The notes under the pieces: model-generated
Databases searched by the model: none
Seen by the model: the letters and a program-made list of their open reading frames with translations, nothing else
Told to the model about the DNA's origin: nothing
Program-made: the position numbers and the translations under genes
Shown here: positions 6,689 to 24,890 of the stretch, one piece after another
How positions within the stretch are numbered: position 1 is the first letter of the stretch
Layout: every line of letters starts with the position of its first letter
Assembly: GCA_017439185.1 (NCBI GenBank)
Contig: JAFRTM010000027.1
Coordinates: 1-44,514 of the forward strand
Direction of reading: 5' to 3'
Length of the DNA stretch: 44,514 nt
From: Bacteroidales bacterium
GTDB lineage: Bacteria; Bacteroidota; Bacteroidia; Bacteroidales; P3

Positions 6689-6716
6689 TGACCACTGACC
6701 ACTGGCTACTGGCCAC
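6689..6716 (+). repeat. Array with 7-bp period (TGACCAC-type units)
   Basis: Four consecutive heptamers: TGACCAC, TGACCAC, TGGCTAC, TGGCCAC. The array is intergenic and heads composite element copy A. Confidence 0.8.
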
Positions 6717-6965
6717 TAAATTAACCTTAGACTTACAATAGAGTTGATACCTACTTATGTGCTCTTTACCAGCAATTTAGTATTTGCCAAAAATCACCCC
6801 TCCTCCAACTTTTGATCAAAAAAAATTTACTTTATGTAAACACCGTATAATCAGACCATTAATCCTAATTTTAACACTTTTCTCCCTTTCCTGTCTTTTT
6901 TCCTCCTCCCACACAATATTTTCCTCTCTTTTCCGTTATATTTTGTCTAAATCTGACCCACCCCT
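6689..6965 (+). repeat. Composite intergenic repeat, copy A (heptamer array plus conserved element)
   Basis: After the heptamer array come ATTAACC, ACTT, ATAGAGTTGATACCTAC (6739-6753 region), CAGCAATTTA, a C-rich tract with CCTCC, an A8 run (about 6818-6826) and ACACAATATTTT (6911-6922). A related series in the same order and relative orientation occurs on the minus strand at 24661-24890. The last part of copy A abuts the start of the U32 gene, so this spacer may double as its leader. A 70-85-bp segment after the A-run has no counterpart in copy B. No ORF and no known RNA family was recognised. Confidence 0.6.
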
Positions 6966-8843
6966 ATGACCCCCATCGAACTCCTCGCCCCGGCACGCAA
7001 CCTCTCCCAAGGCATCTCCGCCGTCAACCACGGCGCCGACGCCCTCTACATCGGTGCCCCCTCCTTCGGTGCTCGTGCCGCTGCCACCAACTCTCTCTCC
7101 GACATCGAACAACTCGTCCGCTACGCCCATCTCTACCGCGCCCGTGTTTACGTCACCGTCAATACTCTCCTCTTTGACAATGAGTTAGAGCCGGCAGCCA
7201 AGCTCATTCGTCAACTCTACAACCTCGGCGTGGACGCCATCATCCTCCAGGATCTCGGTCTCCTCCTCGCCGACCTCCCTCCAATACCGCTCCACGCCTC
7301 CACCCAGTGCCACTGCTTCGACCCCGCACGCATCGGCTTCCTCCAGCAGGTGGGCTTCCAACGGGCCATCCTCGCACGCGAGACCTCACTGTCTGAAATC
7401 AACGCCATACACAACGCAACTTCCATAGAATTAGAGGCTTTCGTCCACGGAGCCCTCTGCGTCTCTTTCAGCGGACGCTGCTACCTCAGCCAATACCTCA
7501 CCTCGCGCAGCGGCAATCGCGGCCAATGTGCCCAGCCCTGCCGGTCCCAATGGGATTTACTCGACGAGAAAGGCACTATCTTACATAGAAACAAGCACTT
7601 ACTGAGTCTCCGCGACTTCAACGCTTCGCAGCACCTCTCCCAACTCATCAACGCCGGCGTCACCTCGTTCAAGATAGAAGGCCGCCTCAAGGACGACGCC
7701 TACGTCCGCAACATCACTGCCTATTACCGCTCGCTCCTCGACGGCATCCTCAACGGCAATCCCGACCTGATTCCTTCGTCGTCAGGCAGTACCACTCTCT
7801 TCTTCTCTCCCGACCCCTCCCGTACCTTCAACCGCGGCTTCACCACCTACTTCCTCGACGGACGCCCCGACCGTCTCACCACCGACTCCACACAAAAGAG
7901 CATAGGCAAACAAATCGGTAAAGTACTTAAAATCAATGCTAAAAGCCTTACAGTCTCCACTTCCGAACCTCTACACACGGGCGACGGCCTCTGCTATCTG
8001 TCTAATAATGAGCTACAAGGCTTCGCCGTCAATCGCGTAAACATCATACAATCAGACACGTCTTTCTTACAGGAAATCAACGCCCCGCCCTCCTGCCCTC
8101 CCGCACCGGGCACTCCCCTGTTCCGCAACCACGATATCGCCTTCTCCCGTCTCCTTCAGGGCAACTCCGCTGAACGTAAGATTCCCGTCTCTATGACTCT
8201 ATCTGTCATGGAATCAGGCCTCTCTCTCCTTGTCTCCGACTCCGACGGCTTCTCGGCGTCTGCCTCCACCGACTGCCCACTCTCCCCGGCCAAAGACCCC
8301 TCTAAAGCTGCGCAACAAGCATACAATCAGCTCTCTAAGCTCGGCGACTCGCCCTTCTCTCTCCTCTCCCTCTCGGCCGACAACTGCTCACTCTCCGACT
8401 TCTTCATCCCCGCGTCTGTCCTCAACGCTCTTCGCCGCGCCGCTGTGGAAAAACTCTCCCAAGCCCGCCAAAAATCCAAGCCAACACCTGATTGCCAGCG
8501 TGTTGTCCCCACTACACCTCTTCCCTACCCCGTCTCGGAACCCTCCTCTTCTCTCGGCATAACCAACCACCTGTCCGAGCAGTTCTACCGACTACACGGC
8601 GTCTCTGACATTGAATATAGTGTAGAGAAAACTCAACAGTTTGATTCTAAACCCCTTATGACTACTCGCTATTGCCTACGCTTCGAGCTCGGCATCTGCC
8701 TACGCAAAAATCCTGACTATAAAGGCCCTCTCTTCCTCAAGAACAACCGCTCTCTTCTGCGGGCCGACTTCGACTGTAAGAACTGCCTGATGCGTCTCTA
8801 CGCCGTCAAGAACACCACTGTGCCACCAACACCTGAGCGGTGA
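6966..8843 (+). CDS. Peptidase U32 family protein, probable 23S rRNA hydroxycytidine synthase (RlhA-like)
   Basis: The 625-residue protein starts MTPIELLAPARNLSQG and contains the U32 family signature EAFVHGALCVSFSGRCYLSQ near residues 159-178, followed by GNRGQCAQPCR. The length fits the RlhA/YdcP branch, which hydroxylates C2501 of 23S rRNA; other U32 members act in ubiquinone synthesis or are secreted collagenases. There is no signal peptide, so it is cytoplasmic. C-terminal cysteines (ELGICLRK, FDCKNCLMRLY) could ligate a metal or Fe-S cluster. The coding strand is strikingly C-rich (C 23, G 9 in 8281-8340) although the gene lies on the + strand. Its 3' end overlaps the convergent aspartate kinase gene by 38 bp. 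The family is certain; the RlhA role is inferred. Confidence 0.85.
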   Translation: MTPIELLAPARNLSQGISAVNHGADALYIGAPSFGARAAATNSLSDIEQLVRYAHLYRARVYVTVNTLLFDNELEPAAKLIRQLYNLGVDAIILQDLGLLLADLPPIPLHASTQCHCFDPARIGFLQQVGFQRAILARETSLSEINAIHNATSIELEAFVHGALCVSFSGRCYLSQYLTSRSGNRGQCAQPCRSQWDLLDEKGTILHRNKHLLSLRDFNASQHLSQLINAGVTSFKIEGRLKDDAYVRNITAYYRSLLDGILNGNPDLIPSSSGSTTLFFSPDPSRTFNRGFTTYFLDGRPDRLTTDSTQKSIGKQIGKVLKINAKSLTVSTSEPLHTGDGLCYLSNNELQGFAVNRVNIIQSDTSFLQEINAPPSCPPAPGTPLFRNHDIAFSRLLQGNSAERKIPVSMTLSVMESGLSLLVSDSDGFSASASTDCPLSPAKDPSKAAQQAYNQLSKLGDSPFSLLSLSADNCSLSDFFIPASVLNALRRAAVEKLSQARQKSKPTPDCQRVVPTTPLPYPVSEPSSSLGITNHLSEQFYRLHGVSDIEYSVEKTQQFDSKPLMTTRYCLRFELGICLRKNPDYKGPLFLKNNRSLLRADFDCKNCLMRLYAVKNTTVPPTPER

Positions 8844-10092
8844 TCCGGCTCCTCTGCTCTACCACTATCTCTCTTCCTTCCACTATGCTGTCTATCACCT
8901 CCTGCGTGTAATAGCGTATCGTTATCAGCTCCATTTCCTGGTTATACTTCACGACAAACCTTTCCTGCAGCCGCTCTATCAGCTCTTTAAGCAGCACTTC
9001 ATTATAATCCACACAGAACGAGAAACTTAAGGCGGAATTCTGCATCAGGTTCACCTTCAGGTTAAGCCGTGCCAGTTCGGCAAATATCACCTCCAGGTTG
9101 TCTTCGGCAATAAAAGAAAAGTCTTTCGGCATCACCGATACCAGTACTTGGTTCCGCTTGAATATATAAAGTGGCGTCTGCGGCTCTATCTTGTCAAACT
9201 CCCCAACTGCCGATCCTTCTCTCTCAGGAGTCACAAACGACCTTATATACAATGGTATATGTTTATTTTGTAACGGCTTTACTGTCTTGGGATGTATTAT
9301 CGAGGCTCCATAATAGGCCAATTCGATCGCCTCGGAATATGGTATCTGTCTTACTTTCACCGTATTATGGAAATACTTGGGGTCGGCATTGAGAAATCCT
9401 TCCACATCTTTCCATATAGTAACACTCTTGGAATCAAGCAAGTAGGCCAGCACCGCAGCCGAATAGTCACTCCCCTCCCGCCCAAGGGTTGTAGTGCTGC
9501 CGTCATGTGCCGAAGCTATAAATCCTTGGGTTACAACGACTTTGCCTTCCGTCAAATCAGTCCTCAGCTGTTTGGTGTTCCTCCCGCTCGCCTCCATATC
9601 CACCAATGCTGCCCTGTGCTGCTCATTCGTCGTTATCACCTCTCTTACGTCAAGCCACTTACAATCAATGCCTTGCTGCATCAGATACTGACTCACTATC
9701 GTCGTGCTTAGCAGTTCGCCGTATAGAACCACCCGGTCGTATAATAGATTGTAGTCACGCCCCTCTGCCGGCGCCATTATCTCTGACCGGAGCTCATCAA
9801 ACAGCTTCTTTATCAAGCCATAAACCAGAGCTTTGGGCGAACGGAACAGGTGCCTCAATATCTGCAGATGATACTCTATCACATCTGCCAGCAACGGCTC
9901 TCTCATTTCTGGCTCGCAAACACCTGGTATCAAGCGCTCTAACGCATTGGTCGTCTTGCCCATCGCCGATACCACTATCACTTTGCCGGCTCTGCTCTGT
10001 GACTGCACCCTGGCCACTATCGAGGCCATATTCTCCACAGCCATGGCACTGTTGACTGACGCGCCGCCAAATTTGTGTACTTCTATTTCCAT
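8806..10092 (-). CDS. lysC: Aspartate kinase
   Basis: Aspartokinase catalyses the first step of the aspartate pathway (lysine, threonine, methionine and diaminopimelate), phosphorylating aspartate with ATP. The 428-residue product begins MEIEVHKFGGASV, the KFGG nucleotide-binding motif. It continues with VVSAMGKTTNAL, TTLGREGSDYSAAVLAY and IHPKTVKPL. The C-terminal part (about 300-428, SVMPKDFSFI...) looks like paired ACT regulatory domains, so end-product feedback is likely. The ATG at 10092 is chosen because the kinase motif starts there; an upstream ATG at 10125 would add 11 residues and has a GGGAG sequence before it. No homoserine dehydrogenase domain is present, so it is a monofunctional enzyme. 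Confidence 0.92.
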   Translation of the reverse strand: MEIEVHKFGGASVNSAMAVENMASIVARVQSQSRAGKVIVVSAMGKTTNALERLIPGVCEPEMREPLLADVIEYHLQILRHLFRSPKALVYGLIKKLFDELRSEIMAPAEGRDYNLLYDRVVLYGELLSTTIVSQYLMQQGIDCKWLDVREVITTNEQHRAALVDMEASGRNTKQLRTDLTEGKVVVTQGFIASAHDGSTTTLGREGSDYSAAVLAYLLDSKSVTIWKDVEGFLNADPKYFHNTVKVRQIPYSEAIELAYYGASIIHPKTVKPLQNKHIPLYIRSFVTPEREGSAVGEFDKIEPQTPLYIFKRNQVLVSVMPKDFSFIAEDNLEVIFAELARLNLKVNLMQNSALSFSFCVDYNEVLLKELIERLQERFVVKYNQEMELITIRYYTQEVIDSIVEGREIVVEQRSRITAQVLVAQWCS

Positions 10093-10163
10093 TATATTTC
10101 TCTGATGTATATTATAATAACTCATTTTTTCTCCCAAAATTGTGTCATGTCAAAAAAAAAGTG

Positions 10164-10179
10164 TATTTTTGCAAAAATA
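10164..10179. promoter_or_regulatory. Palindromic divergent promoter core TATTTTTGCAAAAATA
   Basis: A perfect 16-bp palindrome carries one TAnnTTTG -7 box per strand, back to back: 10164-10171 for the WbqC-like gene (ATG at 10186) and 10179-10172 for aspartate kinase (ATG at 10092). The rightward promoter also has TTG at 10140-10142, 21 nt upstream. RNA polymerase could probably occupy only one direction at a time. Confidence 0.65.
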
Positions 10180-10185
10180 TTGCCC

Positions 10186-10818
10186 ATGGAAACACCGCTC
10201 CTCCCCACTTCTTATCTCCCGCCCATTTCCTATATGGCGTTGCTCCTACACTATGGATGTGCCACAATAGAGCGATACGAGACATACCCTAAACAGACCT
10301 GCCGTAACCGTACCACCATACTCTCCGCCAACGGACTTCTGCGACTCTCCGTCCCTGTGGTAAAGACCAACGGCAACCACACCCTTACCAAAGACATCGC
10401 CATAACATACGTTGAACATTGGCAACTCCAACACGTAAGAGCCATAGAATCAGCCTATAGCACCTCCCCGTTTTTCATCCACTACTGGGAGCCTCTCCGT
10501 GAAATAATCCTTAAAGAACATGAATCTCTCTGCTCTCTGAACCACGAACTACTCGACCGGCTGCTCCTCATGATGAAGATCGACTGCGCCGTTAACCCCT
10601 CCTCCGACTACGCCCACACTGCACTAAAAGACTACCGCGACATCTTTTCTCGCCCAACCCCTTCCCTGCCACAATACTATCAAGTATGGTCCGACCGGCT
10701 CCCCTTCGCCTCCAATATTTCTATCTTGGACCTCCTCTTCAACCTCGGTCACATTGAGGCAAAAGAATACTTGCGAAACATTACCCCCCAAATACTAAAA
10801 ACCTTAGAAACAACATAA
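10186..10818 (+). CDS. WbqC-like family protein
   Basis: The 210-residue product starts METPLLPTSYLPPISYMALLLHY. It has the WbqC-like layout: an early tyrosine/proline-rich strand, YPKQTCRNRTTIL, LSVPVV, and a central HWQLQHVRAIESAYSTSPFFIHYWEPL block. WbqC-like proteins often sit in polysaccharide loci, but in Bacteroidetes a lone copy is common and its biochemical role is not settled. No signal peptide or membrane segment is seen. The ATG at 10186 is preferred over longer in-frame options because the promoter -7 box ends at 10171. The gene converges on mnmG, leaving 25 bp between the stop codons that contain a parS-like palindrome. Confidence 0.8.
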   Translation: METPLLPTSYLPPISYMALLLHYGCATIERYETYPKQTCRNRTTILSANGLLRLSVPVVKTNGNHTLTKDIAITYVEHWQLQHVRAIESAYSTSPFFIHYWEPLREIILKEHESLCSLNHELLDRLLLMMKIDCAVNPSSDYAHTALKDYRDIFSRPTPSLPQYYQVWSDRLPFASNISILDLLFNLGHIEAKEYLRNITPQILKTLETT

Positions 10819-10827
10819 TAGACCCGA

Positions 10828-10843
10828 TGTTTCACGAGAAACA
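10828..10843. promoter_or_regulatory. parS-like site, one mismatch (TGTTTCACGAGAAACA)
   Basis: This matches the bacterial parS consensus TGTTTCACGTGAAACA at 15 of 16 positions and lies in the 25-bp gap between two convergent genes. ParB binding is expected from the consensus; it is not shown here. Confidence 0.75.
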
Positions 10844-12769
10844 TCAACCGTTTTTCTTCTCACACACTATCATCAACACCGAAACATCGGCCGGCGATAC
10901 CCCGCTGATTCTTGACGCCTGACCCAATGTTTTGGGCTTCATCTTGCTCAGTTTCTCCCTCGACTCATACGATAACGCCTGTATGGAAAAATAATCTATC
11001 CCCTCCGGCAACTCTATATTCTCAAACTTCACCAATCTGTCTGCCACATCACTCTCTTTTTCGATATACCTTTGATATTTCAACGCTATTTCCGCTCCTT
11101 CCACAATCTCTCTTCTCATATCTTCGGGTTGACTTTCTATAACTTCGCGCAACTCTTGCGACATATCCGCCACATCTTCCATCGTCAACTCTGGACGGGC
11201 GATAAGGTTTTCCAACTTCACCCTCTGTTGCAAAAGCGACGAACCTTTCTCTTCCAGCATGCCATTTACCATTGTTGGAGTCACGCTCTGTTCTCCGACG
11301 CACTTCTTTATCTCCTCCATCCCCTTCCTTTTCTGCTCCACTCTCTTCATCTGACCCTCCGTGGCAAGATGCAATTTCTCATACGACAATGGAGTGAGCC
11401 TTTCGTCGGCATTATCTTGGCGCAGTAATATTCTGTATTCTGCCCGCGAGGTGAACATCCTATAAGGTTCGTCAACTCCTTTGGTCACCAGATCGTCAAT
11501 CAGCACTCCTATATATGCTTGCGTACGGGAAAGCACAAACGGCGCCTCCCCTTTCAGTTTCAACACGGCATTTATTCCTGCCATAAGTCCTTGGCAGGCG
11601 GCTTCCTCATATCCGGTGGTGCCGTTTATCTGTCCTGCAAAATACAGATTCTCCACCCTATTGGTCTCTAGGGTGTAGCGCAACTGTGTCGGTGGAAAAT
11701 AGTCATATTCTATCGCATAGCCCGGCTTGAATATCTCCGCATGCTCAAAACCTTTCATACTTCGCAGAGCCTCCACCTGTACCTCCAGAGGCAACGACGA
11801 GCTGAACCCGTTCAAGTAATACGAGTTTGTGGCGAGTCCCTCGGGTTCTACAAACAACTGGTGCCTCTCTTTTCCGGCGAACCTCACTATTTTGTCTTCG
11901 ATGCTCGGACAATAGCGAGGACCTCGCCCGTGTATCAATCCGCTGAACATCGGCGAGCGGTCAAAACCTGTTGCCAGTATCTCGTGAGTCCTGCTATTCG
12001 TATATGCCATATAGCAACACCTCTTGGCCAGTGGATAACTGAAATCCCTCGTGAACGAGAATCCCTGGGGATCATCGTCGCCCTCCTGTACCTCCAACTG
12101 TGCGAAATCAATCGTCCTACCGTCGATTCTCATCGGAGTGCCGGTTTTCAACCTCTCCACCTCAAAGCCTATGTTCCTAAGACAATCCGACAAACCCACT
12201 GCCGCCCTCTCCCCTATTCTCCCCCCTTCCATCGACATCTCACCTATAAATATTCTCCCGGCCAAGAAAGTTCCGTTGGTCAGCACCACGGCATCTGCGC
12301 TGATTCTAAGACCCATACGGGTTACCACACCCTTTACAACTCCCTCTTCGACCTCAATGCCAGTTACCTCGTCTTGCCAAAGTCTCAAATTAGGCGTATT
12401 CTCCAACACTCTACGCCATTCCACCGTAAACACAGCCTTGTCACACTGGGCTCGCGGACTCCACATTGCAGGCCCTTTCGACCGGTTCAACATGCGAAAC
12501 TGTATCGTACTCAAGTCCGTCACCCTGCCCGACATCCCTCCAATAGCGTCTATCTCTCTTACTATCTGCCCTTTAGCCACTCCTCCCATCGCCGGATTGC
12601 ACGACATGCGGCATATTGCCTCAATATCTTGCGTAATCAACATAGTATCAGCACCTAACCTCGCCGCTGCATGTGCCGCCTCAGCTCCGGCATGTCCTCC
12701 TCCAACCACTATTACTCGTGGTCTCCCCTCGCTTTTTACAAAAATATTATCGCTAACCGTTTGATTCAT
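10844..12769 (-). CDS. mnmG: tRNA uridine-5-carboxymethylaminomethyl modification enzyme MnmG (GidA)
   Basis: MnmG works with MnmE to install the cmnm5 group on the wobble uridine (U34) of certain tRNAs, using FAD. The 641-residue product has the dinucleotide-binding motif VIVVGGGHAGAEAAHAAARLG (about 19-39), CNPAMGGVAKGQIVREIDAIGG, SPRAQCDK, RLKTGTPMRID, and the C-terminal MnmE- and tRNA-binding helices ending YESREKLSKMKPKTLGQASRISGVSPADVSVL. Length is normal. The start overlaps the ybeY stop by 4 bp (ATGA), indicating translational coupling. MnmG is often origin-proximal in bacteria, consistent with the parS sites around it. Confidence 0.98.
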   Translation of the reverse strand: MNQTVSDNIFVKSEGRPRVIVVGGGHAGAEAAHAAARLGADTMLITQDIEAICRMSCNPAMGGVAKGQIVREIDAIGGMSGRVTDLSTIQFRMLNRSKGPAMWSPRAQCDKAVFTVEWRRVLENTPNLRLWQDEVTGIEVEEGVVKGVVTRMGLRISADAVVLTNGTFLAGRIFIGEMSMEGGRIGERAAVGLSDCLRNIGFEVERLKTGTPMRIDGRTIDFAQLEVQEGDDDPQGFSFTRDFSYPLAKRCCYMAYTNSRTHEILATGFDRSPMFSGLIHGRGPRYCPSIEDKIVRFAGKERHQLFVEPEGLATNSYYLNGFSSSLPLEVQVEALRSMKGFEHAEIFKPGYAIEYDYFPPTQLRYTLETNRVENLYFAGQINGTTGYEEAACQGLMAGINAVLKLKGEAPFVLSRTQAYIGVLIDDLVTKGVDEPYRMFTSRAEYRILLRQDNADERLTPLSYEKLHLATEGQMKRVEQKRKGMEEIKKCVGEQSVTPTMVNGMLEEKGSSLLQQRVKLENLIARPELTMEDVADMSQELREVIESQPEDMRREIVEGAEIALKYQRYIEKESDVADRLVKFENIELPEGIDYFSIQALSYESREKLSKMKPKTLGQASRISGVSPADVSVLMIVCEKKNG

Positions 12770-13179
12770 AGTAATTTCAGTGCTTCATCCTCTCTCTGAT
12801 GCATCTTCTTGGCCTCTTTTTCCGTCTTGTCGCCCTGTCCCAACAGGTGCAACACCCCGTGTACCATCACCCGGTGCAGCTCGCTCTCAAAATCCACCCC
12901 GAACTTCTTGGCATTCTCCCCGACCCTCTCCACACTAATCAAAATATCGCCCGACACAACATCCCCTTCATTGTACGGAAAAGTTATTATGTCGGTATAG
13001 GTGTCGTGTTGCAAATACTGACGGTTGACCTCAATCAGATATTTGTCGTCGCAAAAAAGGTAACCTATCTCCCCTACCCTCTTCTTCTCATTCTCGATTA
13101 CACCCTTCAACCACTTCCGCAGACGCAGACGTTCCTTCAACTTGAAATTCTCGGTTTCTATTGTAAAAGTGATAGCCAT
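12766..13179 (-). CDS. ybeY: Endoribonuclease / rRNA maturation factor YbeY
   Basis: YbeY is a zinc-dependent endoribonuclease acting in 16S rRNA 3'-end maturation and ribosome quality control. The 137-residue protein has the TYTDIITFPY block and the metal-binding HGVLHLLGQGDK motif (about 110-121). The usual terminal DH of that motif is DK here; the later His in KKMHQ may be the third zinc ligand. The same substitution seems usual in Bacteroidetes homologues. It is the upstream partner of mnmG in a two-gene operon with an ATGA overlap. The promoter is not obvious in the spacer above it. Confidence 0.93.
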   Translation of the reverse strand: MAITFTIETENFKLKERLRLRKWLKGVIENEKKRVGEIGYLFCDDKYLIEVNRQYLQHDTYTDIITFPYNEGDVVSGDILISVERVGENAKKFGVDFESELHRVMVHGVLHLLGQGDKTEKEAKKMHQREDEALKLL

Positions 13180-13292
13180 TTTTATATTTTCTTGTCATTT
13201 TCATTTTTTAGCTTCCTGCCGCTGTTTTCCATAAAACACGCCCAATCTACTCTCTTTCAATTCATTGTCCGTATATTTCCCTCTTTTTAACC

Positions 13293-13355
13293 CTCTGAGA
13301 ATCGCTTATTTCCCCGTGGCAGCATATCCACCAACCGTTTTTTCGATTCTCAGAG
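13293..13355. repeat. 12-bp perfect inverted repeat around a 39-nt loop
   Basis: CTCTGAGAATCG (13293-13304) pairs exactly with CGATTCTCAGAG (13344-13355). The loop contains a smaller GTGG/CCAC inverted repeat, so transcripts could fold into a nested hairpin. There is no U-tract, so it is not a standard terminator. It sits in the ybeY upstream spacer and could be an operator, leader structure or small RNA. Confidence 0.6.
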
Positions 13356-13418
13356 ACTTTACCGCACATTCGTATGACACAATTTTTCATACCCACTCTC
13401 TCCATTAACCAAAGTTAA

Positions 13419-13483
13419 ACCAACCTTTACTCAACCTTTAACCAACCTTTAACTTACCCTTAATTTGCCCTTAACTTGTCTTA
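13419..13483 (+). repeat. Degenerate tandem array with 11-bp period
   Basis: Six units of 11 bp, for example CTCAACCTTTA, ACCAACCTTTA, ACTTACCCTTA, ATTTGCCCTTA. It lies in the 13180-13544 spacer. The period is close to one DNA helical turn. No ORF covers it convincingly. Confidence 0.7.
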
Positions 13484-13544
13484 TCAAAAAATTGGCATAA
13501 CCGGTACCACCGACTATGCCAAATAAATTTTCAGAATTTTATTT

Positions 13545-17546: not shown

Positions 17547-17637
17547 GCTACTTGTTTACAATATGTTATTACAAATTGACGCTAATAAACCAAACTACAA
17601 AAATACAAAAAATATATGAATATATAATATTTTTATG

Positions 17638-17645: not shown

Positions 17646-17666
17646 CAAAGAGAAACAAATGAAACA

Positions 17667-18467
17667 ATGAACAGAGTAATACTAATCACTGGAGCGTCGT
17701 CAGGATTTGGGAAGAGCATAGCCGAGCGGCTTGTAAGAGAAGGGGAAATCGTATATGGAACCAGCCGTAAAGAGCAAGGGACCAGCGATATAAAGTTTCT
17801 GAAGATGGACGTAAGAGACCGCGAGTCGGTAGGGGAGGGAGTAAAGAAGATAATCGAAGAGCAGGGGCGAATCGATGTGGTGATATGCAATGCCGGGATG
17901 GGCATCGGCGGCTCGTTGGAGTGTGCCACGGCGGAAGAGATAGAGGTGCAGATGGGGACCAACTTTATGGGGTGTGTGAACGTGTGCCAGGCCGTGTTGC
18001 CCTATATGAGGAAAGCGAGGGCCGGCAGGATAGTAAATATCAGCTCAATCGGAGGGGTGATGGGTTTGCCCTACCAAGGGTTCTATTCCGCCTCAAAATT
18101 CGCCATAGAGGGCTTTACCGAGGCGCTGAGCGCAGAGGTCAAAGGCTTTGGAATCAAGGTGAGCATGGTAGAGCCCGGAGACTTCGCCACAGGCTTCACG
18201 GCGAGCAGGATAAACTCGCAGCAAACACTTGACAACGAGGACTATGGTCCAATATTCCGGCGTTCGTTGGAAATTATAGAGAAAGAGGAGAACGGAGGGT
18301 TGAAACCCGAAGTGCTGGCAAAAGCCATAGTGCGGATAATCAATGCCAAACACCCGAGGCTGAGATACCCAGTAGCCAACCTGGAGCAGAAACTGTCGGT
18401 GGTGCTGCACAGGATATTGCCCGGCAACTGGATGGTAGATATACTAAGAGACTACTACAAAGCATAA
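17667..18467 (+). CDS. Short-chain dehydrogenase/reductase (SDR)
   Basis: The 266-residue classical SDR starts MNRVILITGASSGFGKSIAERL, with the NAD(P)-binding TGxxxGxG motif. It continues with NAGMGIGG, NISSIGG (catalytic Ser) and the catalytic YSASK pair, then EPGDFATGF. The substrate cannot be read from sequence. A 3-ketosphinganine-type reductase role is possible because serine palmitoyltransferase lies about 4.4 kb away, but the genes are on opposite strands and not in one operon. The ATG at 17667 is used because the TGxxxGxG motif begins eight residues later, as is usual; the in-frame TTG at 17643 overlaps the promoter -7 box. Confidence 0.88.
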   Translation: MNRVILITGASSGFGKSIAERLVREGEIVYGTSRKEQGTSDIKFLKMDVRDRESVGEGVKKIIEEQGRIDVVICNAGMGIGGSLECATAEEIEVQMGTNFMGCVNVCQAVLPYMRKARAGRIVNISSIGGVMGLPYQGFYSASKFAIEGFTEALSAEVKGFGIKVSMVEPGDFATGFTASRINSQQTLDNEDYGPIFRRSLEIIEKEENGGLKPEVLAKAIVRIINAKHPRLRYPVANLEQKLSVVLHRILPGNWMVDILRDYYKA

Positions 18468-18490
18468 TAGCACGGTATTTGCTAATTGTC

Positions 18491-20179
18491 TCATTGGTTA
18501 ACTTTAACCAAATCGCGAATAGTGTTTCCTACATTTATTAAGTGGTCAGCCACGCGCTCGGCATTCTGAGCGAGCGATATGTATTCCGCACCCGTTGTAG
18601 GATCACATTCCCCTCGACCAAGACGCTCAATATGGCTTTGTTCCATTGTTTCGGTGAAATCATCTATCTTGTCCTCAACAACATAAGCACGCTCAAGTGC
18701 CTCAATGTCAAGTTTATGGTAAGCTTGCATAATCTCAGAATACAGATTGTCGATTAACTTTTCCATTTGAAGTATTTCTTTGATAGCATCCGGGGAGAAA
18801 GAGGAACCTTGTTGCTTGAGAGCGTCGGCATATTCCACAATATTTTCAGCATAATCCCCAATACGCTCAAGGTCACAAACAGAACGGACGGAAGTCGTAA
18901 GATATTGATGGTCAAAGCGATTGAGTCTTTTGTCAAAGAGTTGAACGGTAAATCGAACCAACTCAGCATTGAGATAATTCAATTCATGTTCGGTTTTCTT
19001 AAACTTTTCCAACTCAGAATAATCCATAGTGGTGACAATCTTAATGGCCCGGTGGAAGTTTTGCATAGCAATTTGAGACATATTTTCTATTTCCGCCTTT
19101 ACCTGGCGTACAGCAACCACAGGAGTTCTTAACATTTGATAATCAAGAAAATAGAAATGCGGCTCATCTTTTGTATCAGACTTCTTGTCTTTTATCAATT
19201 TACAGGAGAAGGACACAAGCAGATTGGTAAGAGGAAGAGCCACAAGCATAGTACAAACATTGAAAACCGTGTGGAACATAGCTAGTTGCAACTGAGGCTC
19301 ACCCTTAAACAACAAGCCAAACAGCCGGCCAAAACTCCAATTACCACCAGAAGCCAACCAAAGTATCAAAGCCATTACCAAGAAAATCACCACACCCATA
19401 ATATTGAATATGAGGTGAATAATTGCTGTACGTTTAGCATTAACACCACTTGTCAACCCAGCAATCAAGGCAACAACACAGGACCCGATATTAGAGCCCA
19501 TAGTAAGATAGATACCCTGATCCAGTAAAACCAATCCCGAAACCACCATAGTGATAGTGATCGACGTCATCACAGAGGAAGACTGAATTACGGCGGTCAT
19601 GACGGCACCAATGAAGACAAGCAACAGAGGATTGTCTATGCTTGCGAGGAATAATTTCACACCCTCGAGAGCGGCAAACCCGTCCATTGCATCTGCCATC
19701 ATAGCCAGACCAACAAAGAGCAAGCCAAAACCAGCCAAGATGCCGCCTACTTGTTTCAGCATATCACGCTTTGAAAAGAGAGCCAAGAAGGCCCCTATTC
19801 CCGCCATTGAGGCAAAAATAACGGTAGGAGAAACCCCGCCTGAGCCAGTCATACCAAGAGCCACGAGTTGGGCAGTCACAGTGGTACCGATATTAGCACC
19901 ATAGATGATTGTCGCAGCCTGAGCCAGAGACATTATGCCGACATTGACAAAACCAATAACCATAACGGTTACAGCACCACTGCTTTGTATTGCTGCAGTG
20001 CCTATAGTACCAATACCTACACCAATCCATTTGTTTTTTCCTGTACGGCTGAAAAGTCTTTTTAGGCGTTTTGATGAAACTGATTCAAGGTGGCTGCTCA
20101 TCATCTGACAAGCCATAAGGAATACGCCTATTCCAGCCAGGAGAGTAAGAAAAGCGATGATTATTTCTGTTGCATTCAT
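18491..20179 (-). CDS. Na+/phosphate cotransporter family protein (NptA/YjbB-like) with PhoU-like domain
   Basis: The 562-residue protein has an N-terminal membrane region with the two inverted Na/Pi repeats: IGTAAIQSSGAVTVMVIG, GANIGTTVTAQLVAL, and later AVIQSSSVMTSITITM and GSNIGSCVVALIAGL. The QSS motifs are the family signature. The C-terminal 200 residues (from about 360) are soluble and helical, resembling PhoU. It should sit in the inner membrane and move phosphate with Na+. ATG at 20179 is chosen since it directly precedes the first membrane helix. A strong terminator hairpin ends about 17 nt upstream of its ATG, so it probably has its own promoter, which I could not identify. Confidence 0.9.
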   Translation of the reverse strand: MNATEIIIAFLTLLAGIGVFLMACQMMSSHLESVSSKRLKRLFSRTGKNKWIGVGIGTIGTAAIQSSGAVTVMVIGFVNVGIMSLAQAATIIYGANIGTTVTAQLVALGMTGSGGVSPTVIFASMAGIGAFLALFSKRDMLKQVGGILAGFGLLFVGLAMMADAMDGFAALEGVKLFLASIDNPLLLVFIGAVMTAVIQSSSVMTSITITMVVSGLVLLDQGIYLTMGSNIGSCVVALIAGLTSGVNAKRTAIIHLIFNIMGVVIFLVMALILWLASGGNWSFGRLFGLLFKGEPQLQLAMFHTVFNVCTMLVALPLTNLLVSFSCKLIKDKKSDTKDEPHFYFLDYQMLRTPVVAVRQVKAEIENMSQIAMQNFHRAIKIVTTMDYSELEKFKKTEHELNYLNAELVRFTVQLFDKRLNRFDHQYLTTSVRSVCDLERIGDYAENIVEYADALKQQGSSFSPDAIKEILQMEKLIDNLYSEIMQAYHKLDIEALERAYVVEDKIDDFTETMEQSHIERLGRGECDPTTGAEYISLAQNAERVADHLINVGNTIRDLVKVNQ

Positions 20180-20192
20180 ATTAAAAATTTTA

Positions 20193-20588
20193 TCATTTTG
20201 AAAAGAAAAATGGTACAATTCCGATTGGAATTGTACCATTATAAGAACTAATGTTTGTAATTAAAAAAACTTTTCGCGGGGCATACCGACGGACAAGTCC
20301 TCTCCATTGTTCGTCAGAGCGCTGAACTCCATTGAAATAAAGGATTGGCAAGTATTCATTCCAAATTTTTTTTATGCTATTAACGTACGACGGGGTTTGG
20401 CATTCAGCCATATCGTCTATTTCGTTCCAATCCATATCGTCAGCACTATACTCGACACTTGCAATGACCTGCAAATCCTGCAATTCACGGTTATAGTCGC
20501 CCACTTCATCAACCAATAGGGAAAAACAGAACAATGTTGCCAGTAAAAAGAACAAATAGTTCGAGTATTTTCTTACAAAAGCGAACAT
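20193..20588 (-). CDS. Small membrane-anchored hypothetical protein whose 3' end covers a terminator hairpin
   Basis: The 131-residue frame has one N-terminal hydrophobic helix (YLFFLLATLFCFSLLV, about 10-25), then a soluble acidic part (SADDMDWNEIDDMAECQ). No family was recognised. The last residues (about NGTIPIGIVPFFFSK) are encoded by a perfect 14-bp hairpin plus its T-tract, so the stop lies beyond the transcript's likely end. A run of seven T (A7 at 20263-20269 on +) lies just before; a one-base change there in either direction gives a stop (TAA or TAG) before the hairpin. The real C-terminus is therefore doubtful. It follows the GNAT-like gene by 11 bp and is probably co-transcribed with it. 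Confidence 0.55.
   Translation of the reverse strand: MFAFVRKYSNYLFFLLATLFCFSLLVDEVGDYNRELQDLQVIASVEYSADDMDWNEIDDMAECQTPSYVNSIKKIWNEYLPILYFNGVQRSDEQWRGLVRRYAPRKVFLITNISSYNGTIPIGIVPFFFSK
20196..20240 (-). terminator. Rho-independent terminator of the serine palmitoyltransferase operon
   Basis: AATGGTACAATTCC (20209-20222) and GGAATTGTACCATT (20227-20240) form a perfect 14-bp stem with a GATT loop. On the minus strand it is followed by TTTCTTTT. It lies between the small hypothetical protein and the Na/Pi transporter. Confidence 0.8.
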
Positions 20589-20599
20589 TGCTTACTATG

Positions 20600-21721
20600 T
20601 TAGAGGTTCATGCCGAAGACGGCTCGTTTCATCAGAGGAGTTGCGTCGTATTGTGTACTCCAGATCTTAACAGCCTCGTTACCAATAATCTGCGGATTGG
20701 TATAGGCCGTGTGGACGTTGTATTTTATGGCGTTCTCACTCATGGCGGCGTAATATATGGAGTGGACACCACGTTTCTGCCAGTCGGGGTGGACGCCGTT
20801 AAGGAGCGCGTCGAGCGTGTCATAGTGACGTAGAGCGTGTAGGATGTGGATCCAGCCGAATGGGAAGAGGTGGCCGTTGGCCTTTTTGTAAGCCTTGTTG
20901 AGGTCGGGGACGCTGAGGCCGAAAGCCACGAGATTGTCGTCCTTGTCAACCACGAACTGGACGAACTTGAGGTCGATGAACGGGAAGTATTCTTTGATGT
21001 AAACGTTTATTTCCTTGTCAGTTAGCGGCACGAAATCGTAAAGATCCTTGAAAGCGTCGTTTAGAGTGTGGAAGAACTTGGTGGCGTAGGGATATATTTC
21101 CTTGCGGCTCTTGACTTTTAGGAGGCGGAGATTGTATTTCTCCATGATGAGGCCGTTGATGCGTGCCACCTTGGGAGGAACCGGCTGATTGGCAGGAAGT
21201 TTATACTGAGCCCACTGGCATTTTATCTCCATGCCGAAACGCTGGACAAATTTGATGTAATACTCTGGGTTATAGAGCGTTGAGATATTTTGGCGGGCGT
21301 CGAAGCCTTCGATGACCCAGCACTCCTTGTCCATGTCGGTGAAGCCGAAAGGACCTTCTATCTCGTTCATTCCATGAGACTTGCCGAATTCTATGACCTT
21401 GTTCATGAGGGCCGAAAAGACGTCGTAGTCCTCGATGAAGTCCATCCATCCGAAGCGGACCGCTTTCTTTTCCCAGCGTTCGTTTACGCGAGTGTTGATG
21501 ATAGCCGCCACACGGCCAATGACCTCTTTGCCACGATAGGCGAGGTAGAGAGAGACCGGGCAGTATTCCCACGAGGGGTTTTTGGGAGTGAGAAGCTTGA
21601 CTTCGTCAGAGATGATGGGAGGGATATAAGTAGGTACGTTTTTGAAGAGCCGGTTAGGGAGGTTAATGAACTGGCGGAGTTGTCTGCGGCCAGTAACTTC
21701 CTTGATAACAATAGGTTCCAT
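20600..21721 (-). CDS. GNAT-fold acyltransferase-like protein linked to serine palmitoyltransferase
   Basis: The 373-residue product has PVSLYLAYRGKEVIGRVAAIINTR (about 56-79), an acetyltransferase-like beta-sheet, and GPFGFTDMDKECWVIEGFD, a motif of large GNAT-like Bacteroidetes proteins. It ends NAVKIWS-type sequence (IGNEAVKIWSTQYDATPLMKRAVF). The first base of its ATG is the last base of the serine palmitoyltransferase stop (TAATG), so the two are translationally coupled. Neighbourhood and fold suggest an acyl-transfer step in sphingolipid or ceramide formation; this is inference, as the acceptor cannot be read from sequence. No signal peptide is seen. Confidence 0.75.
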   Translation of the reverse strand: MEPIVIKEVTGRRQLRQFINLPNRLFKNVPTYIPPIISDEVKLLTPKNPSWEYCPVSLYLAYRGKEVIGRVAAIINTRVNERWEKKAVRFGWMDFIEDYDVFSALMNKVIEFGKSHGMNEIEGPFGFTDMDKECWVIEGFDARQNISTLYNPEYYIKFVQRFGMEIKCQWAQYKLPANQPVPPKVARINGLIMEKYNLRLLKVKSRKEIYPYATKFFHTLNDAFKDLYDFVPLTDKEINVYIKEYFPFIDLKFVQFVVDKDDNLVAFGLSVPDLNKAYKKANGHLFPFGWIHILHALRHYDTLDALLNGVHPDWQKRGVHSIYYAAMSENAIKYNVHTAYTNPQIIGNEAVKIWSTQYDATPLMKRAVFGMNL

Positions 21722-22905
21722 TAAAGTATCTCTAATTTTTTGAAGGAGGTGTAAATCTTATCGACAGCGTAGTCGACCTGTTCGCGAGTGTGGGTAGCCA
21801 TGAGGGCGACACGAATGAGGGTGTCCTCCGACTGTACCGCGGGAGCTATGACCGGAGTCACGAAGACGCCCTGTTCGAGGAGCATGTGGGTGAGGAGGAA
21901 CGTCTTGTCCTGGTCGCGTATAAAGAGCGGAATTATAGGCGTTTGAGTGTTGCCGATCTCGAAGCCGAGGTCAGAGAAACATTTCATGGCGTAGTTGGTG
22001 ATGTTCCAGAGAGCCTGCTGGCGTTCCGGCTCAGAGCGCATGATGTGTAGTGCCGCGAGGACGGAGGCAGTAGAGGCAGGAGATATGGAAGCGGTGAAGA
22101 TGTAGGGGCGGACGTTGTGTTTCATCCAGTTGATAGTGTCGGCATCCGAGGCAATGAAACCGCCCACCGAGGCGAGGGACTTGGAGAACGTACCCATCAC
22201 GATATCAACGTTTTGGAGTTGCTGGAAGTGGTCGCAGGTGCCACGTCCTTCGGCTCCAAAGACACCGAGACCGTGAGCCTCGTCAACCATGAGAGTAGCC
22301 TGGTACTGGTCGCAGAGCTGTACGAGCCGGTTGATGTCGGCCACGTCGCCTTCCATGGAGAAGACACCGTCGGTGACTACGAGCTTGGAGGCGTCGAGCG
22401 GGCATTTCTGGAGTAGGCGCTCGAGGTCGTCAAAGTTGAGATGCTTGTATTTATAGGTAGTGGCGAAAGTGATCTGTTTGCCTTCCATGATAGAGGCGTG
22501 GTCCCGTTCGTCGTAGAAAACGAAGTCGTTGCGTCCGGTGACACAAGGGATGGTGCCCGAGTTGGCCTGGAAGCCGGCTGAGAAGAGCATAACTCCGTCT
22601 TTACCAAGGAATTCGGCGAGTTCGTCCTGGAGTTGGATGTGGATGTCGAGAGTGCCGTTGAGGAAAGGAGAGCCTGCGCATCCCGAGCCGTATTTGTCGA
22701 TAGCCGCTTTAGCCGCTTCCTTGATTTTGGGGTGGTTGGTCAGGCCGAGATAAGAATTAGAACCGAACATAAGGACTTTGCGTCCATTGACGAGAACCTC
22801 AGTGTTTTGCTCGGAAGAGATGGGAGTGAAGTAGGGGTAGATGCCCTTAGCCTTGGCTTCCTGAGGTGCTGTGTACTGTGCTAACTTTTTTCTAAGAGGT
22901 TTCAT
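21721..22905 (-). CDS. spt: Serine palmitoyltransferase (alpha-oxoamine synthase family)
   Basis: This PLP enzyme condenses serine with an acyl-CoA to give 3-ketosphinganine, the first step of sphingolipid synthesis. The 394-residue protein shows NSYLGLTNHPKIKEAA, YGSGCAGSPFLNGT, FSAGFQANSG, DERDHASIMEG (His stacking on PLP), VDEAHGLGVFG, and the Schiff-base lysine in GTFSKSLASVGGF (about 240-252). Within the alpha-oxoamine synthases, 2-amino-3-ketobutyrate CoA ligase and 8-amino-7-oxononanoate synthase are alternatives. The closeness to Bacteroides/Porphyromonas serine palmitoyltransferase and the coupled GNAT gene favour the sphingolipid role. A TATCTTTG -7 box lies 36 nt upstream. Confidence 0.87.
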   Translation of the reverse strand: MKPLRKKLAQYTAPQEAKAKGIYPYFTPISSEQNTEVLVNGRKVLMFGSNSYLGLTNHPKIKEAAKAAIDKYGSGCAGSPFLNGTLDIHIQLQDELAEFLGKDGVMLFSAGFQANSGTIPCVTGRNDFVFYDERDHASIMEGKQITFATTYKYKHLNFDDLERLLQKCPLDASKLVVTDGVFSMEGDVADINRLVQLCDQYQATLMVDEAHGLGVFGAEGRGTCDHFQQLQNVDIVMGTFSKSLASVGGFIASDADTINWMKHNVRPYIFTASISPASTASVLAALHIMRSEPERQQALWNITNYAMKCFSDLGFEIGNTQTPIIPLFIRDQDKTFLLTHMLLEQGVFVTPVIAPAVQSEDTLIRVALMATHTREQVDYAVDKIYTSFKKLEIL

Positions 22906-22940
22906 ATATTATGAAGAAATAAAAACTAAAAACGAACTTG

Positions 22941-22948
22941 CAAAGATA
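22941..22948 (-). promoter_or_regulatory. Candidate -7 box TATCTTTG of the spt operon
   Basis: TATCTTTG on the minus strand, 36 nt from the spt ATG at 22905, in the 69-bp gap after deoC. Confidence 0.55.
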
Positions 22949-22974
22949 GGAAAAAAATTTAGAATAACGGTAAA

Positions 22975-23742
22975 TTATTTAGTTAAAAAATCGAAGAGAG
23001 AGTTTGTGAGACGGCTTGCTCCAATTCTAAAATAGTGTTTGTCAATATATTGAGGTCCTAAAATGTTTTGAGCGAGAGAGGCGTAAAGGAGAGCCTGTTC
23101 GGGAGAAGAAATGCCGCCCGAAGCCTTGAATCCGACCAGTTTTTTAGTTTTTTGGTAGTAATTTTTAATACTTTTTAACATAAGTTCCGCTGCCTCCGGG
23201 GTGGCGCCGCCGGGAATTTTGCCTGTAGAAGTCTTGAGGAAGTCGGCGCCGGCTGCGATGGCGAGGTCAGAAGCCTTGGAGATGAGATCCGGGGAGGGGA
23301 GGGCGGAAGTCTCGAGGATGACCTTGAGGACGTGAGAGCCGCAGAGATCTTTTATGGAGGCTATCTCGTCGGAGACTTGGGAGAGTTCGCCTGCGAGGAA
23401 GAGGCCGAGAGAGAGGACGATGTCTATTTCGTCTGCACCGTTGTCGAGAGCATACTGAACCTCAAGGAGTTTGGAGGAGAGAGGAGCCTGAGCAGAGGGG
23501 AACGCCGCTGCCACGGAAGCCACCGAGATGTCCGAGCCCTGGAGAGCCTTGACTGCGGCGGGTACGAGAGAGGGGTAGACGCAAACCGAGGCCACATGAG
23601 GGTTTGGGGAGTTGGGGAGAGAGAGGGAGAGAGAGTGCTGGCAGAAGGCGGCGATAGAAGCCGGGGAGTCGGTAGAGTTGAGAGAAGTGTTGTCGATGCA
23701 GCCGAAGATGGCTGTCAGCAGTTGTCGGTCAGAGAGGTTCAT
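22975..23742 (-). CDS. deoC: Deoxyribose-phosphate aldolase
   Basis: DeoC cleaves 2-deoxyribose-5-phosphate to glyceraldehyde-3-phosphate and acetaldehyde in deoxynucleoside catabolism. The 255-residue product has CIDNTSL, ASVCVYPSLV, EIDIVLSLG, KVILETS, the Schiff-base lysine in GADFLKTSTG, and VGFKASGGI. The ATG at 23742 overlaps the rpiB stop by 4 bp (ATGA) and is chosen because the family N-terminus begins there; an open extension further upstream is only antisense-like Arg-rich sequence inside rpiB. The + strand is unusually G-rich over this gene. Confidence 0.95.
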   Translation of the reverse strand: MNLSDRQLLTAIFGCIDNTSLNSTDSPASIAAFCQHSLSLSLPNSPNPHVASVCVYPSLVPAAVKALQGSDISVASVAAAFPSAQAPLSSKLLEVQYALDNGADEIDIVLSLGLFLAGELSQVSDEIASIKDLCGSHVLKVILETSALPSPDLISKASDLAIAAGADFLKTSTGKIPGGATPEAAELMLKSIKNYYQKTKKLVGFKASGGISSPEQALLYASLAQNILGPQYIDKHYFRIGASRLTNSLFDFLTK

Positions 23743-24179
23743 AGGAGTTGGGATATTTTTTCGACACGGCGTTGATGGCGACCCCCTTCGAAGGGAGTGT
23801 TGAGAAACTCGTCGACGATCTTGATGGCGAGGTCGGCGGGTATGAAACGAGCCGGGAGAGAAAGGACGTTGGCGTCGTTGTGTTGGCGGGCGAGATGTGC
23901 AATCTCGATGTTCCAGCAGAGAGCGCAACGTACGTTAGGATATTTGTTTACAGTCATTTGGACGCCGTTGCCCGAGCCGCAGATGACGATGCCGCGGGAG
24001 AATTCACCACGGTTGACGGCAGAGCCGAGCTGGTGGGCGAAGTCGGGGTAGTCGCAGGAGTCGGAGGAGAAGGTGCCGAAGTCTTTGACGTCGAAGCCGG
24101 CGTCTTTGAGATAATTGATTACCAGTTGTTTGAGTTCATAGCCGGCGTGGTCGCAAGCGATTGGTATAATTTCGTTCAT
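23739..24179 (-). CDS. rpiB: Ribose-5-phosphate isomerase B
   Basis: RpiB interconverts ribose-5-phosphate and ribulose-5-phosphate. The 146-residue product starts MNEIIPIACDHAGYELKQ and has DYPDFAHQLG, GIVICGSGNGVQMTVNKYP (active-site Cys and GxGxG-type loop) and the C-terminal helix IVDEFLNTPFEGGRHQRRVEKI. Length is typical. ATG at 24179 is preferred to an in-frame start 30 bases upstream, which would add ten non-homologous residues. The operon rpiB-deoC links pentose isomerisation to deoxyribose-phosphate breakdown. A TACTTTTG -7 box lies 28 nt upstream. Confidence 0.95.
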   Translation of the reverse strand: MNEIIPIACDHAGYELKQLVINYLKDAGFDVKDFGTFSSDSCDYPDFAHQLGSAVNRGEFSRGIVICGSGNGVQMTVNKYPNVRCALCWNIEIAHLARQHNDANVLSLPARFIPADLAIKIVDEFLNTPFEGGRHQRRVEKISQLL

Positions 24180-24206
24180 TGGTGTGATAATTAAAGATTT
24201 AAGTTG

Positions 24207-24214
24207 CAAAAGTA
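24207..24214 (-). promoter_or_regulatory. Candidate -7 box TACTTTTG of the rpiB-deoC operon
   Basis: TACTTTTG on the minus strand, 28 nt from the ATG at 24179; no clear -33 box. Confidence 0.5.
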
Positions 24215-24530
24215 CAAAGAAAATATGTAACGGGCGCGCGTGGTGTTAATAAAAATATTCACAGAGTTTTTAACAATAGAGTTAAGTTACATGGAATGAA
24301 AGGAATAATGGGTTATCAACAGGTGGGTGTTGAGGAAGTTTGTAAAAGACTGTTAGTATGGTGTTAATGAAAGTTCGGTGGAAGAGAAAAGTTGAGAAAC
24401 TGACGATTTATGAGCGATTTTTAACAATGAATCTTAATTGTAAAGTACAAGGAATGAGGCATTTGGTAGTGTTTTCAACAATATTGACAATGATAAGAAA
24501 AAGAAATATATTTATAAAAGGGAAAAAATA
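24215..24530. other. Gene-free AT-rich region with DnaA-box-like motifs, possible origin
   Basis: No ORF of note. DnaA-box-like 9-mers (consensus TTATCCACA) are TTATCAACA (24313-24321, one mismatch), ATATTCACA (24255-24263, two) and TTTTCAACA (24472-24480, two). TTTTTAACAAT occurs twice, at 24267 and 24418, within longer imperfect direct repeats ending GGAATGA. Genes diverge on either side. This would suit an origin of replication, but boxes are few and weak. Confidence 0.3.
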
Positions 24531-24535
24531 ATATT

Positions 24536-24605
24536 AGTTATAAGTTGTGAGTTCTAAGTTATGAGTTAAGATTGAATTTTGAGTTTTGAGTCTTAAGTTT
24601 TAAGC
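24536..24605 (+). repeat. Array with 7-bp period (AGTTNTR-type units)
   Basis: Ten consecutive heptamers, for example AGTTATA, AGTTGTG, AGTTCTA, AGTTATG, then drifting to TTTGAGT and TTTAAGC. Intergenic. Confidence 0.8.
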
Positions 24606-24660
24606 AAATTAAAAGTTGAATATTATTTTTAAGTGTTTGTTATTTGAGATTTCTTTCATT

Positions 24661-24890
24661 TTTGTATTTGTTAGGTGGAATGGGGGTCGGATTTTGGTTA
24701 AAAGGAAACGTGGGGAGAAAAAAAATATTGTGCGACAGGAGAGAGATTTTTTTTTTGAGAAAAAGAGGGTTGAGGGAGGGTTTTAATAAAAGGTAAGTTG
24801 CTGATAACTAGGACTCGGGTAGGTATCAAGTCTATGTGAAGTATATGGTTGGGTTAATTGAGAATTGAGAATTGAGAATTGAAAGTTGGA
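24661..24890 (-). repeat. Composite intergenic repeat, copy B (inverted relative to copy A)
   Basis: Read on the minus strand from 24890: heptamer array (AATTGAG units on +, 24856-24890), ATTAACC, ACTT, ATAGACTTGATACCTAC, CAGCAACTTA, CCCTCC, an A10 run, CGCACAATATTTT, and AAAATCCGACCCC. Every block has a counterpart in the same order at 6689-6965 on the + strand. By eye the best-aligned 60 bases are about two thirds identical or better. The spacing differs by one 70-85-bp gap. No coding potential. Confidence 0.6.

What the first reader, a model, noticed from the sequence alone, without database searches (positions are those of the whole stretch)
6689..24890. Undescribed composite intergenic repeat in two inverted copies
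Copy A (6689-6965, +) and copy B (24890-24661, -) share the same order of blocks: a 7-bp-period array, ATTAACC, ATAGANTTGATACCTAC, CAGCAAYTTA, CCTCC, a long A-run, CACAATATTTT and AAATCYGACCC. The arrays have different unit sequences but the same place and period, and one copy lacks about 70-85 bp. Neither copy codes for protein. It could be a non-autonomous mobile element, a structured RNA or a shared regulatory region. I know no family that matches.
Basis: seen in the sequence. Interest (0 to 1): 0.75.

Follow-up and report, generated by a model that had tools for sequence, protein, structure and literature searches.

The report
11-bp repeat arrays linked to DUF6266
The two repeats belong to a private family of about sixty copies in this bacterium, built from DNA units one helix-turn long; the same kind of array sits just ahead of a gene family of unknown function (DUF6266) in several related lineages, which hints at an unrecognised protein-DNA partnership.

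Summary
The core of the repeat is real. A ~66-bp core is shared by copies A, B and about 58 other places in this genome. In 119 other species of the genus, 6 give only partial matches of at most 23.9 bits.

The core is a run of degenerate 11-bp direct repeats. Intergenic 11-bp arrays occur in 14 of 17 sampled genomes of the genus; two congeners have their own high-copy versions. Random stretches of other families have almost none.

Outside the genus such arrays lie ahead of DUF6266 genes: 18 of 43, against 3 of 87 ordinary genes, with period 11 almost alone. One array word occurs in 295 genomes only about 110 bp before DUF6266 genes. Here, seven copies precede verified DUF6266 genes, and copy B lies 224 bp from one.

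I found no RNA structure, target duplications or Y1 transposase. Best reading: helically phased operator arrays tied to DUF6266 and dispersed in this genus. Binding is inferred. Inside the genus DUF6266 genes are not significantly richer in arrays (22/59 vs 43/152).

The parts
6687..6717 (+). copy A: 7-bp array (ACTGACC, 4.4 units) at the left edge
   Evidence: recurrent at this place in 16 of 60 copies
6719..6784 (+). copy A: core of degenerate 11-bp direct repeats
   Evidence: model R1, 64.1 bits; alignments
6807..6824 (+). copy A: T-run/A-run block (AACTTTTGATCAAAAAAA)
   Evidence: position; conserved over 37 copies
6845..6861 (+). copy A: second box (GTATAATCAGACCATTA; family CTGATTATCAGTnnnTTA)
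   Evidence: position; conserved over 37 copies
6867..6880 (+). copy A: AATTTTAACACTTT block, last conserved block of the family
   Evidence: position; conservation
24789..24852 (-). copy B: core of degenerate 11-bp direct repeats
   Evidence: model R1, 64.4 bits
24856..24882 (-). copy B: 7-bp array (AATTGAG on the + strand, 3.9 units)
25077..25805 (+). DUF6266 gene; its start is 224 bp from the core of copy B, which points away from it (the opposite orientation to the other DUF6266-linked copies)
   Evidence: PF19781, 68.7 bits; ORF
13401..13485 (.). another intergenic 11-bp array of this genome, different unit (TTTAACCAACC)
39074..39135 (.). another intergenic 11-bp array (CGAATGTGACA), followed by GGAGTTGATA and a CAGTAATTTG box

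Best explanation
The repeat is a helically phased protein-binding array: about five degenerate 11-bp direct repeats, one per DNA turn, read cooperatively by a protein on one face of the helix to control neighbouring promoters. Its old home is ahead of DUF6266 genes, which in several families carry arrays of their own. In this genus arrays, with flanking blocks, were copied into many other upstream regions and drifted into a private version in each of the three species where I looked for the family. Shown: the family, the 11-bp period, its private nature, the DUF6266 link outside the genus. Inferred: that a protein binds the array, that this protein is DUF6266 or works with it, and how copies spread.
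For: Period 11 (and its double, 22) stands out between genes in a scan blind to sequence: 8 arrays in 145 kb here, 20 in 300 kb of three congeners, 14 in 281 kb of further congener stretches, 0 in 272 kb of other families; 1 in 384 kb of six more other-family samples. Private families: 60 compiled places at 22 bits or more here, 31 in G015, 19 in G009, reversed controls 0. Units of 29 non-redundant arrays share a phased consensus: 4.05 bits against 3.50 +/- 0.13, max 3.79, in 40 column-permuted controls. Outside the genus 18 of 43 DUF6266 upstream regions have an array at -430..-50, other periods from 6 to 17 at most 2, ordinary genes 3 of 87, Fisher 7.7e-8. Of 23 DUF6266 loci with both flanks, 9 have an array within 900 bp upstream and 0 downstream. 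The word CGTATCAAGTCCGTATCAAG (one mismatch allowed) occurs in 295 genomes at four places, all 109-112 bp before a DUF6266 match. In 8 of the 12 copies that I grouped as the DUF6266 class the promoter-like TAnnTTTG begins exactly 52 bp after the core. Congeners without DUF6266 hits have 5 arrays in 389 kb, those with hits 39 in 604 kb, on similar amounts of intergenic DNA.
Against: Inside the genus DUF6266 genes are not significantly richer in arrays than other genes (22/59 against 43/152, p 0.14). G313 (0 of 7) and G200 (0 of 3) have several DUF6266 genes and no array in the scanned place. 11 of the 18 outside hits come from G041 and G243, which share a genus; the G170 hit is a pyrimidine-rich run; the control set was not filtered for low complexity while the DUF6266 set was. 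The density correlation (Spearman 0.54, p 0.025, n 17) is not corrected for ancestry. Three of the four places are where the word came from. The orientation of arrays to genes differs between species. Nothing shows that DUF6266 binds DNA: no solved relative (best E 0.45), no significant family match beside DUF6266 itself, model of no use (pLDDT 39.8). Congener G002 (20 kb) shows no 11-bp array despite 18 DUF6266 hits.
Confidence: 0.45

Rival explanations
1. A non-autonomous mobile element (MITE-like, comparable to BrickBuilt) that carries a minisatellite; the arrays have no role of their own and copies were moved by a transposase acting in trans.
For: Dispersed intergenic copies with a sharp left border, private to the species, 31 nearly identical copies in G015; close pairs are rare (1 of 37 gaps under 5 kb, 6.8 expected for uniform placement, P 0.002).
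Against: No target-duplication signal in G015 (longest shared word 5.56 within a copy, 5.52 between copies); no terminal inverted repeat seen by eye; right border fades; no Y1 transposase here or in G009 (other transposases were not searched); it does not explain arrays ahead of DUF6266 genes in other families.
Confidence: 0.25
2. The arrays are operators for an ordinary regulator, for example a response regulator of the OmpR/PhoB kind, and DUF6266 is merely one of its old targets.
For: ArcA of E. coli binds sites in which most hold three to five direct repeats mainly 11 bp apart (PMC3798270, passages); arrays here lie ahead of genes of many kinds.
Against: Unit sequences differ between arrays of one genome and between DUF6266 paralogs of G243, unlike the sites of one regulator; no regulator was identified.
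Confidence: 0.15
3. Function-free minisatellites made by replication slippage.
For: Unit sequences turn over fast, 7-bp arrays also occur between genes, and orthologous places are not kept (5 of 29 congener loci around the gene next to copy A hold an 11-bp array, none at a fixed place).
Against: Slippage does not explain one period, 11, ahead of DUF6266 genes in 8 genomes, nor the phased consensus, nor the fixed order of blocks in 37 copies.
Confidence: 0.1
4. A structured or small RNA whose gene is repeated.
For: G015 copies carry a leftward promoter-like site right of the array in 27 of 30 copies, at the same distance in 17 of 30; G009 arrays are inverted (7 of 9 with arms of at least 19/22).
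Against: No conserved pairing in this genome's family, no Rfam match, no strong inverted arms at this genome's arrays (0 of 8). For G015 the low folding energy was compared only with column shuffles, which do not keep dinucleotides.
Confidence: 0.05

Closest known systems
BrickBuilt minisatellite MITE of Porphyromonas gingivalis (PMC4596501; abstract and passages read)
   Same: Dispersed intergenic repeat of a Bacteroidales species, limited host range, tandem units between leader and tail parts, promoter activity reported
   Different: Units of 23 nt against 11; small inverted-repeat ends reported there and none seen here; 19 copies there; no DUF6266 link reported in what I read
ArcA-type multi-repeat operators of OmpR/PhoB response regulators in E. 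coli (PMC3798270, passages read)
   Same: Two to five direct repeats, mainly 11 bp (or 22 bp) apart, ahead of many genes
   Different: One consensus for one regulator; here unit sequences differ between arrays and species, arrays are copied with flanking blocks, and no regulator is known
Plasmid centromere arrays of ParR (11-bp repeats) and omega (7-bp repeats) (recalled; only a search listing was seen)
   Same: Arrays of 11-bp or 7-bp direct repeats near promoters
   Different: Plasmid partition loci; no ParM or ParR was searched for here
REP elements mobilised by RAYT (Y1) transposases (recalled)
   Same: High-copy intergenic repeats
   Different: No Y1 transposase match in this genome or G009; no hairpin in the core

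Membership tests
BrickBuilt / MITE | dispersed, intergenic, high copy number | tested here: met
   60 compiled places at 22 bits or more; none covered by a called gene in the table
BrickBuilt / MITE | target-site duplication | tested here: not met
   G015 family, 27 copies: 5.56 against 5.52 in mismatched pairs; not tested for this genome's own family
BrickBuilt / MITE | terminal inverted repeats | tested here: inconclusive
   none seen by eye; no formal test; right border is gradual
BrickBuilt | 23-nt tandem unit | tested here: not met
   period 11, with 22 as its double
REP / RAYT | Y1 transposase in the genome | tested here: not met
   PF01797: 0 matches in this genome (92% complete) and 0 in G009
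Structured RNA | conserved pairing with compensatory changes | tested here: not met
   0 pairs on one strand; 10 pairs with 0 compensatory on the other; no Rfam match
Phased direct-repeat operator (ArcA-like) | several direct repeats 11 bp apart, ahead of genes | tested here: met
Phased direct-repeat operator (ArcA-like) | bound by a regulator in vivo | not testable with these tools
   no binding data
DUF6266-linked array (as proposed here) | 11-bp array 50-430 bp ahead of a DUF6266 gene | tested here: met
   outside the genus 18 of 43 against 3 of 87; seven copies here with a verified DUF6266 gene on the right. Copy A is not next to one. Inside the genus no significant enrichment

The most novel reading that the evidence does not exclude
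DUF6266 proteins and 11-bp arrays form an unrecognised gene-array system: each paralog recognises, and perhaps propagates, its own one-turn-per-unit array, so that protein and array diversify together; in this genus the arrays have spread over roughly a quarter of the sampled upstream regions as species-private regulatory or selfish DNA.
Probability: 0.3. Interest if true: 0.85.

Novelty: new variant of a known kind. Interest (0 to 1): 0.62.

Why it matters
DUF6266 is a family of unknown function with up to 39 matches per genome in this genus and no paper in the library searched. A specific DNA partner ahead of its genes would be a first testable handle on what it does. The arrays also show regulatory-looking DNA whose geometry (11 bp) is kept while its letters are replaced from species to species, which bears on how promoters and repeats evolve.

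Tried and rejected
RNA structure: rejected for this family. Y1/RAYT: rejected here. Conserved place: 11-bp arrays in the ortholog loci of the gene next to copy A in 5 of 29 congeners, no fixed place. The box next to the array as a general promoter box: 1 hit in 108 promoter regions. Regular spacing: CV 0.78 against 0.92 for uniform placement, P 0.12, not shown; only close pairs are rare (gaps on contigs of known length, not restricted to intergenic DNA). A functional theme among 107 neighbouring proteins: none seen by eye, not family-scanned. DUF6266: best PDB match E 0.45; single members give E 0.014 or weaker in PHROGs, NCBIfam and PADLOC, taken as noise; model from one sequence discarded. 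GTDB scan for CCATAGASTTGATACCTAC: one stretch, which looks like coding sequence by eye and has no array (the tool may leave out this genome); viral contigs 0. Type III toxin-antitoxin arrays were considered and dropped, since their units (recalled) are about 36 nt.

Rows dropped: 4 of the 65 places were not compiled. The model was built from 19 of the 20 places (L020 left out), so these match it by construction. The class 'DUF6266 copies' (12) was set by me: 6 have a Pfam match beside them (L033, L035, L042, L061, L071, L077), L037 shows the protein start, L036 and L041 were grouped by DNA similarity, L050 and L083 end at contig ends and were grouped by eye, and L087 has its DUF6266-like gene on the left, as copy B has. 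One search used 37 copies (no DUF6266 class, 36 bits or more, without L068, L074, L075). One search skipped one 422-base stretch. One search left out L239, L261, L263, L350, L360, L364, L367 and L369 (short, cut or not entered) and pieces under 300 bases (L269, L307, L308); L263 shows an array by eye, L364 none. One search counted runs of N as matches and is replaced.
Full report
Observation. Copies A and B share a core far above shuffled controls (44.0 against mean 24.6, max 35.5), and the genome holds many more. TTGATACCTAC occurs 20 times, 0 times reversed. A sequence-only model from 19 aligned copies finds 65 places at E<=1; I compiled 61, of which 60 have 22 bits or more. The blocks CACAATATTTT and AAATCYGACCC are not part of the family (1 and 0 of 59 other compiled copies), and the right part of A against B is at chance.

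Anatomy. In 37 copies outside the DUF6266 class the order is: core of about 66 bp; C-rich stretch; T-run/A-run block; CTGATTATCAGTnnnTTA; AATTTTAACATTT; then nothing conserved. The left border is sharp and the right one fades. Read by eye, the core is ACTTA-CCATAG-AGTTG-ATACCT-ACTTG-TGTCCT-AGTTA-TCAGCA-ACTTA, a similar 5-bp word every 11 bp. Pairing is not conserved. Neighbouring genes are of all sorts. Of 49 copies outside the DUF6266 class, 21 have divergent neighbours, 14 and 5 lie in tandem, 1 is convergent, and 8 have a side without a called gene.

A genus-wide pattern. A scan blind to sequence finds intergenic 11-bp arrays in this genome (8 in 145 kb), in three congeners (20 in 300 kb) and in 8 of 20 further congener stretches (14 arrays), but 0 in 272 kb of other families and 1 in 384 kb of six more other-family samples. 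Some congener stretches also hold arrays of period 7, 9 and others. The stretches of G009, G015 and G004 were taken from contigs that carry a weak hit of the model, the hit itself lying outside the stretch. In all, 14 of 17 sampled genomes of the genus show at least one. Units differ by species and place, for example TGACTCCTAGA, TTGTTCTTCGA and GGAGTTGAGTA. Two congeners have private families of 31 and 19 places. Of 119 other congeners 6 match this genome's model, none above 23.9 bits (strict filters). Units of 29 non-redundant arrays still share a phased consensus beyond permuted controls (4.05 against 3.50 +/- 0.13); common descent could explain part of it.

The DUF6266 link. In this genome six copies have a Pfam DUF6266 match on their right (L033, L035, L042, L061, L071, L077) and a seventh shows the start of such a protein (L037). 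Further copies at contig ends were grouped with them by DNA similarity or by eye. In 8 of the 12 grouped copies the promoter-like TAnnTTTG begins exactly 52 bp after the core (consensus seen in PMC7366714, one passage). Copy B (224 bp) and L087 (258 bp) have a DUF6266 gene on the other side. The family is amplified in the genus: 21 matches here, 39 in G001, 24 in G004, 26 in G024, none in 5 of 25 genomes. Array density goes with it: 5 arrays in 389 kb of congeners without matches, 39 in 604 kb with matches, though ancestry is not controlled.

Outside the genus the link is sharper. Of 43 DUF6266 upstream regions from 20 genomes, 18 (8 genomes) have an 11-bp array at -430..-50, while no other period from 6 to 17 exceeds 2; ordinary genes of other families score 3 of 87. 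Eleven of the 18 come from G041 and G243, one genus; the G170 case is a pyrimidine-rich run. In G243 7 of 10 examined DUF6266 genes have arrays, and the units differ from paralog to paralog. In G048, G146 and G209, three families, one DUF6266 subtype shares the unit CCGTATCAAGT. A 20-base word of that array was found in 295 genomes of the order at four places only, each 109-112 bp ahead of a DUF6266 match (DUF6266 coordinates). Three of the four are where the word came from; G209:C129 was new. The string TATCAAGTC also appears in the reverse complement of copies of the finding's core (those with CTTGATACC, such as copy B).

Against. In this genus arrays are so common (43 of 152 ordinary upstream regions) that DUF6266 genes do not stand out significantly (22 of 59, p 0.14). 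G313 (0 of 7) and G200 (0 of 3) have several DUF6266 genes and no array. G002 shows none in 20 kb despite 18 matches. No tool gives DUF6266 a function.

Mechanism. I commit to a phased operator array read one unit per helical turn, as for ArcA in E. coli, where most sites hold three to five repeats mainly 11 bp apart (PMC3798270, passages). DUF6266 itself, or a partner controlled with it, is the likeliest reader. The way of spread is open: target duplications are absent in G015, and close pairs are rare here (1 of 37 gaps under 5 kb, 6.8 expected). Arrays and genes keep no fixed orientation between species, which suits a bidirectional or architectural site better than a one-way activator site.

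Known things. The nearest object in print that I saw is BrickBuilt (PMC4596501, abstract and passages). Searches without a report: Cryptobacteroides with intergenic and tandem repeats (the genus name is my guess, no tool named the organism), Bacteroidales with 11-bp, tandem repeats, intergenic and promoter, DUF6266. The library holds only openly licensed papers. I therefore file it as a new variant of a known kind of dispersed repeat, with a possibly new protein partner.

Noticed in passing
L003:1409-1483, L005:1146-1221, L011, L012 (two), L017, L048, L065, L082; congeners L114:16523-16598 and L118:13477-13552: A ~65-nt hairpin motif with a constant internal loop (GCGAGAGCA / TGCCGAGC) and a changing inner stem: 11 sequences, 4 of 11 predicted pairs with compensatory changes. 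No Rfam match for eight loci of this genome scanned. It sits left of several copies of the finding and in two congeners.
   Followed up: partly
L178-L207 (genome G015): The private repeat family of G015 carries a promoter-like site pointing back into the repeat: found in 27 of 30 copies, exactly 128 bp from the array's reference edge in 17 of 30, inside a near-palindrome TTTTGCACTTGCAAAG.
   Followed up: partly
this genome, 37 gaps between copies on contigs of known length: Copies avoid one another: 1 gap under 5 kb against 6.8 expected for uniform placement (P 0.002).
   Followed up: partly
congeners G001, G004, G024 and this genome: DUF6266 genes are strongly amplified in this genus (up to 39 matches per genome) and have no match in 5 of 25 genomes.
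   Followed up: partly
L208-L226 (genome G009) and L124, L158 (genome G029): Arrays built as two inverted 11-bp arrays around a centre; 7 of 9 arrays in the G009 sample have inverted arms of at least 19/22.
   Followed up: partly
window 2-6517 (minus strand); repeats at 5212-5835: A very long ORF (2171 aa, open at the window edge) with two 306-bp tandem copies at 92% matches.
   Followed up: no
window 39585-40388: KilA-N domain gene (PF04383) just after the 11-bp array at 39074-39135.
   Followed up: no
L323-L325 (genome G060, another family) and L127:1-340 (genome G010): Seven intergenic 7-bp arrays in 60 kb of G060 and a 340-bp heptad array of CAACTGT/CAACTAC type in G010: 7-bp arrays are not confined to this genus.
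   Followed up: no
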